Source of the DNA: Chloroflexota bacterium
GTDB lineage: Bacteria; Chloroflexota; Anaerolineae; B4-G1; DUEL01
DNA: 64,000 nucleotides
NCBI GenBank assembly: GCA_014874475.1
Contig: JADBJJ010000029.1
Coordinates: 62,001-126,000 of the forward strand
Reading direction: 5' to 3'
The notes beneath the pieces are model-generated. The model searched no databases, was not told where the DNA came from, and worked only from the letters and a program-made list of their open reading frames with translations. The first letter of the stretch is position 1. Each line of letters starts with the position of its first letter. The translations under genes and the position numbers were made by a program. Shown piece after piece: positions 40,241 through 40,562 of the stretch.

Positions 40241-40562
40241 GGCTAACCTGCGCTTCGTGCGACCCGTTTACCCGAAACCGTGGTGACACGGGGGCTGGGT
40301 ATGGACGCAGGGCTGCTATACGAGAGAGCACAGGTACGGGAAGAGTGTGGGTTCGAAAACCGGACCCGATGTCCAACTCTGAGAGTGCGTGGGCCCAGTC
40401 CTGATGCCGATGACAACGACGTGTGGGCCAGGAGCCGGATGAGGGGAAACTCTCACGTCCGGTTCTGGAACGGCGGTGGGGCGGGCGACTGCCCCACCGA
40501 CCGTAACCACCTGACGCCGCTCCGCTGCGCTTCGCGGCGCAGGTGAAGCGCGGCCGTTAGGC
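40241..40562 (+). mobile_element. attC-like recombination site B, split by an intron
   Basis: GGCTAAC-CTGCGCTTC (40241-40256), interrupted by 251 nt, continues at 40508 with CACCTGACGCCGCTCCGC and ends in GTTAGGC (40556-40562), a classical integron core. Without the insert it is 71 nt and almost identical to site A, including the two extrahelical bases. Confidence 0.78.
40257..40507 (+). mobile_element. ORF-less remnant of a group II intron inside attC B
   Basis: Starts GTGCG, the group II 5' consensus. Domain V is at 40432-40466: GAGCCGGATGAGGGG, AAAC, TCTCACGTCCGGTTCT. Domain VI follows as GGTGGGGC/GCCCCACC with an unpaired A at 40500, seven nucleotides from the 3' end (TAAC), the expected branch point. 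At 251 nt it has no reverse transcriptase and is too short for a full domain I-IV, so it is internally deleted. Insertion in an attC is the habit of group IIC-attC introns. Confidence 0.75.

What the first reader, a model, noticed from the sequence alone, without database searches (positions are those of the whole stretch)
40257..40507. Group II intron remnant inserted precisely inside an attC
Seen: the insert divides attC B between CGCTTC and CACCTG, where attC A is continuous. It starts GTGCG, contains a near-canonical domain V (40432-40466) and a domain VI with an unpaired A seven nucleotides from the end. It has no reverse transcriptase and is only 251 nt. Known: group IIC-attC introns target attC sites. 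Inferred: a deleted copy, mobile only with help in trans if at all. It reads in the same direction as the cassettes.
Basis: partly seen in the sequence, partly recalled or inferred. Interest (0 to 1): 0.76.

Follow-up and report, generated by a model that had tools for sequence, protein, structure and literature searches.

The report
Broken group IIB intron inside attC
A 251-base leftover of a self-splicing mobile intron sits inside an integron recombination site; its relatives show that this intron lineage homes to such sites by base pairing with a box that the integron system itself keeps conserved, although this copy has lost the parts it would need to splice or move.

Summary
Window 40257-40507 is a group II intron derivative (RF00029, 61.3 bits; D5 40432-40465; D6 with bulged A40500) splitting an attC whose uninterrupted twin lies at 35784-35855. 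The implied class is not supported: this is not group IIC-attC. The lineage is IIB/chloroplast-like: AGC triad in D5, an RT-maturase-HNH protein closest to TeI4h, insertion on the cassette strand, between L'' and the apical stem. All 16 non-redundant 5' junctions of the lineage lie 7-9 bases after an attC R'' box (YYAAC), against 0 of 29 other chloroplast-like introns. A blind exon-intron pairing scan placed EBS2 (GUUGG) on the R'' box and EBS1 on L'' (0 of 500 exon shuffles reach either). The window copy is a decayed member: nt 1-45 joined at a CTGGG microhomology to D4-D6 of an ORF-less subtype, with the rest of D1 and all of D2-D3 gone, including both exon-binding sites. It very probably cannot splice or home, even with an RT in trans. 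The genome holds other broken copies and no intact RT. New variant of a known kind (attC-homing IIB introns that use the R'' box as IBS2); the window copy itself is a fossil.

The parts
35784..35855 (+). attC A, uninterrupted twin of the occupied site (R'' GCATAAC, R' GTTGGGC)
   Evidence: 98% identical arm; bottom strand folds as attC hairpin
40241..40256 (+). 5' half of attC B: R'' box (GGCTAAC, 40241-40247; IBS2 CTAAC 40243-40247) and L'' (GCGCTTC, 40250-40256; IBS1)
   Evidence: pairing assignments from relatives
40257..40507 (+). 251-nt group IIB intron derivative
40257..40301 (+). intron nt 1-45 (GUGCG and the first D1 hairpin), 45/45 identical to copy C32a
40295..40303 (+). deletion junction at a CTGGG(TA) microhomology; about 0.53 kb (rest of D1, D2, D3) missing relative to the ORF-less intron of G018
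40302..40429 (+). D4 remnant of the ORF-less subtype (83-84% to G018:C42 in two pieces)
40432..40465 (+). domain V, AGC triad
40470..40504 (+). domain VI, bulged branch-point A40500; 3' splice site after 40507
40508..40562 (+). 3' part of attC B: apical stem, L' and R' (GTTAGGC 40556-40562)
41647..41775 (+). attC C, next attC-like site of the array (R'' GCCTAAC, R' GTTGGGC)
   Evidence: read directly from the sequence

Best explanation
The insert is a dead internal-deletion derivative of a group IIB (chloroplast-like) intron lineage that homes to integron attC sites. [quoted passage not shown] the RT-maturase-HNH protein completes target-primed copying. A member without an ORF entered attC B this way. 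It then lost about 0.53 kb (most of D1, all of D2-D3) between short CTGGG repeats and now merely splits the attC. Shown by computation: intron identity, class, site, lineage-wide site preference, the two pairings, the deleted parts. Inferred: the homing chemistry (from established group II biology), the order insertion then deletion, loss of splicing, and weakening of the attC.
For: RF00029 match. Full-length relative with intact RT-maturase-HNH ORF, best solved relative 6me0. 16 of 16 lineage junctions sit 7-9 bases after YYAAC against 0 of 29 other chloroplast-like introns. EBS1/EBS2 found by a blind scan; 0 of 500 exon shuffles reach the observed pairing. Conserved, covarying D1-D3 in seven relatives, absent from the window copy. 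Window copy contains neither GTTGG nor AAGCG. Other copies in the genome are also broken and no intact RT is found. The 251-nt form was not seen elsewhere in 48 genomes of the order, nor was its D4 joined to nt 1-45 in 392 of the class.
Against: No laboratory evidence. The 5' sequence that remains is perfectly conserved and D5-D6 are intact, so selection on the ends is not excluded. EBS1 pairing is short in G230 and G023. The genome is a draft; contigs C4 and C15 end inside intron copies, so an intact RT copy could be hidden in a gap.
Confidence: 0.87

Rival explanations
1. [quoted passage not shown]
For: IIC-attC introns are the classical attC-associated group II introns (PMC7923331, PMC4424553).
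Against: AGC, not CGC, in D5; chloroplast-like protein with HNH in the relative; EBS2-IBS2 pairing present in the lineage; cassette-sense orientation and insertion between L'' and the stem instead of TTGT/T on the bottom strand.
Confidence: 0.02
2. The deletion came first: the 251-nt form is a non-autonomous mobile unit that inserted into attC B as it is, using RNA domains and protein given in trans by other copies.
For: Both ends are intact and exact; ORF-less and RT-deleted relatives in attC sites show that incomplete copies exist and some have multiplied.
Against: No second copy of the 251-nt form; it lacks both exon-binding sites and D1-D3; the junction looks like a microhomology deletion.
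Confidence: 0.06
3. The insert has been kept because it tunes or locks the attC: a structured insert in the variable part of attC weakens cassette excision and so stabilises the upstream cassette.
For: R'', L'', L' and R' are intact around the insert; DNA folding of the bottom strand with the insert gives only about 0.09 probability for pairing of R''/L'' with the first 45 nt holding R'/L'.
Against: No test of selection; the other copies of the genome are broken in many different ways, as expected of debris.
Confidence: 0.05

Closest known systems
Group IIC-attC introns (e.g. S.ma.I2; described in PMC7923331 and PMC4424553)
   Same: Group II introns that insert in attC sites of many different cassettes
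   Different: IIC ribozyme and class C protein; bottom strand, opposite to cassettes; TTGT/T in R''; the folded hairpin replaces IBS2. Here IIB, cassette strand, between L'' and stem, R'' box itself acts as IBS2
UHB.I2, IIB1/CL1 intron in a cassette array of Tanatar-5 soda lake (PMC7923331)
   Same: Chloroplast-like IIB intron beside an attC, same orientation as the cassettes
   Different: Single case, placed immediately after the attC rather than inside it, no endonuclease domain, boundaries UUGCG..GU; no EBS2-R'' box pairing reported in the parts of the paper read
H.ha.F1 and H.ha.F2 of Halorhodospira halochloris (PMC7923331)
   Same: Broken IIB introns inside a cassette array without neighbouring integrase
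   Different: Class E protein; 5' ends missing
Thermosynechococcus elongatus TeI4h intron and protein (PDB 6me0)
   Same: Chloroplast-like RT-maturase, best solved relative of the lineage's protein
   Different: Not known for attC targets (my knowledge); its own targets were not tested here

Membership tests
Group II introns (any class) | Domain V and VI with bulged A, GUGYG start and AY end | tested here: met
Group II introns (any class) | Domains I-III (catalytic scaffold and exon binding) present in the copy | tested here: not met
   Deleted in the window copy after nt 45; present in relatives. It is a derivative, not a working intron
Group II introns (any class) | Splicing or retrohoming activity | not testable with these tools
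   needs RT-PCR or a homing assay
Group IIC-attC introns | CGC triad in domain V | tested here: not met
   AGC; criterion from PMC7923331
Group IIC-attC introns | Insertion in the attC bottom strand at TTGT/T, opposite to cassettes | tested here: not met
Group IIB, chloroplast-like lineage | Encoded RT-maturase-HNH protein of chloroplast-like class in full-length members | tested here: met
   L051 550 aa: RVT_N, RVT_1, GIIM, HNH; best solved relative 6me0. No protein tree was built
Group IIB, chloroplast-like lineage | IBS1-EBS1 and IBS2-EBS2 pairings in D1 | tested here: met
   In the lineage; lost in the window copy
Group IIB, chloroplast-like lineage | IBS3-EBS3 pairing with the first base of the 3' exon | not tested
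   EBS3 was not located
attC site | R'', L'', L', R' boxes and a palindromic bottom-strand fold with an unpaired base | tested here: met
   no IntegronFinder model available, recombination not testable here

The most novel reading that the evidence does not exclude
The 251-nt form is not dead: it splices or moves with D1-D3 and protein supplied in trans by other attC introns of the cell, i.e. a split group II system living in bacterial cassette arrays.
Probability: 0.04. Interest if true: 0.85.

Novelty: new variant of a known kind. Interest (0 to 1): 0.52.

Why it matters
The lineage behind the remnant reads attC by pairing of intron RNA with the R'' box, the sequence that the integron integrase itself keeps conserved. 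One intron thus has a whole family of homing sites in cassette arrays, in the strand that would let it splice out of cassette transcripts. This is a different solution to attC homing from that of group IIC-attC (folded bottom strand), and it makes a simple prediction: change EBS2 and the preference for attC is lost. It also shows ORF-less and RT-deleted intron copies accumulating in cassette arrays of what is inferred to be Chloroflexota.

Tried and rejected
A first guess for EBS1 (GAAGCGU at nt 279 of C32a) was rejected: it lies in a stretch conserved in chloroplast-like introns with other targets; the blind scan placed EBS1 in the hairpin loop around nt 355-364 and EBS2 at nt 291. An EBS2 candidate near nt 85-95 scored lower. 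The same cassette with an empty or full-length-occupied attC was not found in the genus. No exact match to the junction in viral contigs. In plasmids only a 38-base stretch at D5 matches, in cyanobacterial plasmids. A simple attC pattern found nothing near the integrase gene on C27; inconclusive. No held paper joins group II intron, integron and Chloroflexi. One paper look-up failed on its search term.

Full report
Check. The insert at 40257-40507 is real and its ends are exact. RF00029 covers 40430-40507 at 61.3 bits; D5 is 40432-40465 and D6 has a bulged A at 40500. The RNA folds better than all 200 shuffles.

Setting. The window is part of contig C11 of a 3.0 Mb genome in 32 contigs. The intron protein of genome G019, of the same genus, is 100% identical to that of a named record, a Chloroflexi MAG, 626A.7, so the window is inferred to come from Chloroflexota. 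The array in the window has three attC-like sites: 35784-35855, the split one, and 41647-41775. The genome has one integron integrase over the curated cut-off, on contig C27, not beside this array.

Other copies. The same genome holds 5' ends of the intron at C32:7857, C15, C19 and C4, and 3' ends at C32:8923, C32:4934 and C4. The only copy with both ends besides the window copy is C32a, C32:7857-8923 (1067 nt). Its protein is cut down to the start of the RT (RVT_N) plus HNH; C32b, a 5'-truncated copy, carries the same internal RT deletion. No intact RT of this kind was found in the genome.

Full-length relative. G019:C71 (L051 1046-3420, 2375 nt) carries a 550-aa RT-maturase-HNH protein whose best solved relative is 6me0, from the T. 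elongatus chloroplast-like intron. The D5 triad is AGC. Together with the exon pairings below this makes the lineage IIB/chloroplast-like, not IIC.

Where it inserts. Sixteen non-redundant 5' junctions with sequenced exons (five from this genome, four from its genus, one from its order, five from three genomes of its class, one from another class of the phylum) all have YYAAC starting 12-14 bases before the intron. None of 29 other chloroplast-like introns from the named collection does. Joined flanks fold as attC. The intron reads with the cassette in every case where the attC orientation can be read. Chance expectation for YYAAC in such a stretch is a few percent per site (my estimate).

How it finds the site. 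I aligned D1-D3 of 35 chloroplast-like introns and asked, column by column, where the intron can pair with its own 5' exon. Two places stand out: exon -9 and upstream with GUUGG at C32a nt 291 (z 7.4), and exon -1 to -6 with a hairpin loop around nt 355-364 (z 4.5). With exons shuffled among introns, 0 of 500 trials reach the observed mean for either. In the attC lineage the first is the R'' box: CCAAC with GUUGG, CTAAC with GUUAG in G023, and CTAAC with GUUGG through a G-U pair in this genome. The second is L'': AAGCGU with GCGCUU in C32a, AGCGCA with UGCGCU in G022, which inserts two bases earlier in the attC. Pairing at EBS1 is weaker in G230 and G023, and for G019 the scan's longest helix was a different one, so EBS1 is less secure than EBS2.

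What the window copy is. It shares nt 1-45 with C32a without a mismatch, D5-D6 at 95% with C32a, and two D4 pieces at 83-84% with the ORF-less 841-nt intron of G018, which also sits in an attC. About 0.53 kb between two CTGGG stretches is missing: the rest of D1, D2 and D3. These parts are conserved, with 34 pairs that change on both sides, in seven relatives. The window copy contains no GTTGG and no AAGCG. It therefore lacks target recognition and the catalytic scaffold. Loss of splicing and mobility is inferred, not tested. With the insert, the bottom strand of attC B is predicted to pair R''/L'' with R'/L' at only about 0.09, so the attC is probably weakened.

Known and new. Group IIC-attC introns, one chloroplast-like IIB intron beside an attC (UHB.I2) and two broken class E IIB introns in a cassette array are known (PMC7923331). 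Not described in the held papers that were found: a IIB lineage fixed on the L''/stem position, with the R'' box as IBS2, in several families of one phylum. More distant relatives (58-60% protein identity) at L103, and probably L104 and L135, and an ORF-less copy in G383, appear to sit in the R' box of attC-like sites instead; this was followed only in part.

Noticed in passing
L103, L104, L135; L075 (G383:C137): More distant chloroplast-like introns (bacterium Vin_4, Leptolyngbyaceae CSU_1_3, G383) appear to be inserted in the R' box (G|TTRRRY or GT|TRRRY) of attC-like palindromes: possibly a second IIB attC site preference, perhaps that of UHB.I2.
   Followed up: partly
L017 7857-8923 and 4410-4934 (C32a, C32b): Two intron copies share the same internal RT deletion, leaving a small RVT_N-HNH fusion protein; the deleted form was therefore duplicated after the deletion.
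   Followed up: partly
L017 8894-8911 against window 40478-40495: The tip of the D6 hairpin is exactly inverted between copies (GGGGCAGTCGCCCGCCCC against GGGGCGGGCGACTGCCCC).
   Followed up: no
L058 (G023:C157) 1006-1652 and downstream: In a relative, a 3'-truncated intron of the same lineage lies upstream of a gene start (ATGTCCAAGATTCTGCGGGTCAA) that is also found at window 42701, so this spot may be a recurrent cassette landing place.
   Followed up: no
window 33004-34542: CRISPR-like array with 21 repeat copies at 73-76-nt spacing, just upstream of the cassettes.
   Followed up: no
window 34735-34846: Molybdenum cofactor riboswitch match exactly at the gathering score (36.1 against 36 bits), + strand.
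   Followed up: no
window 35433-35789: HicB-like antitoxin gene immediately before attC A; a HicA-like reading frame precedes it.
   Followed up: no
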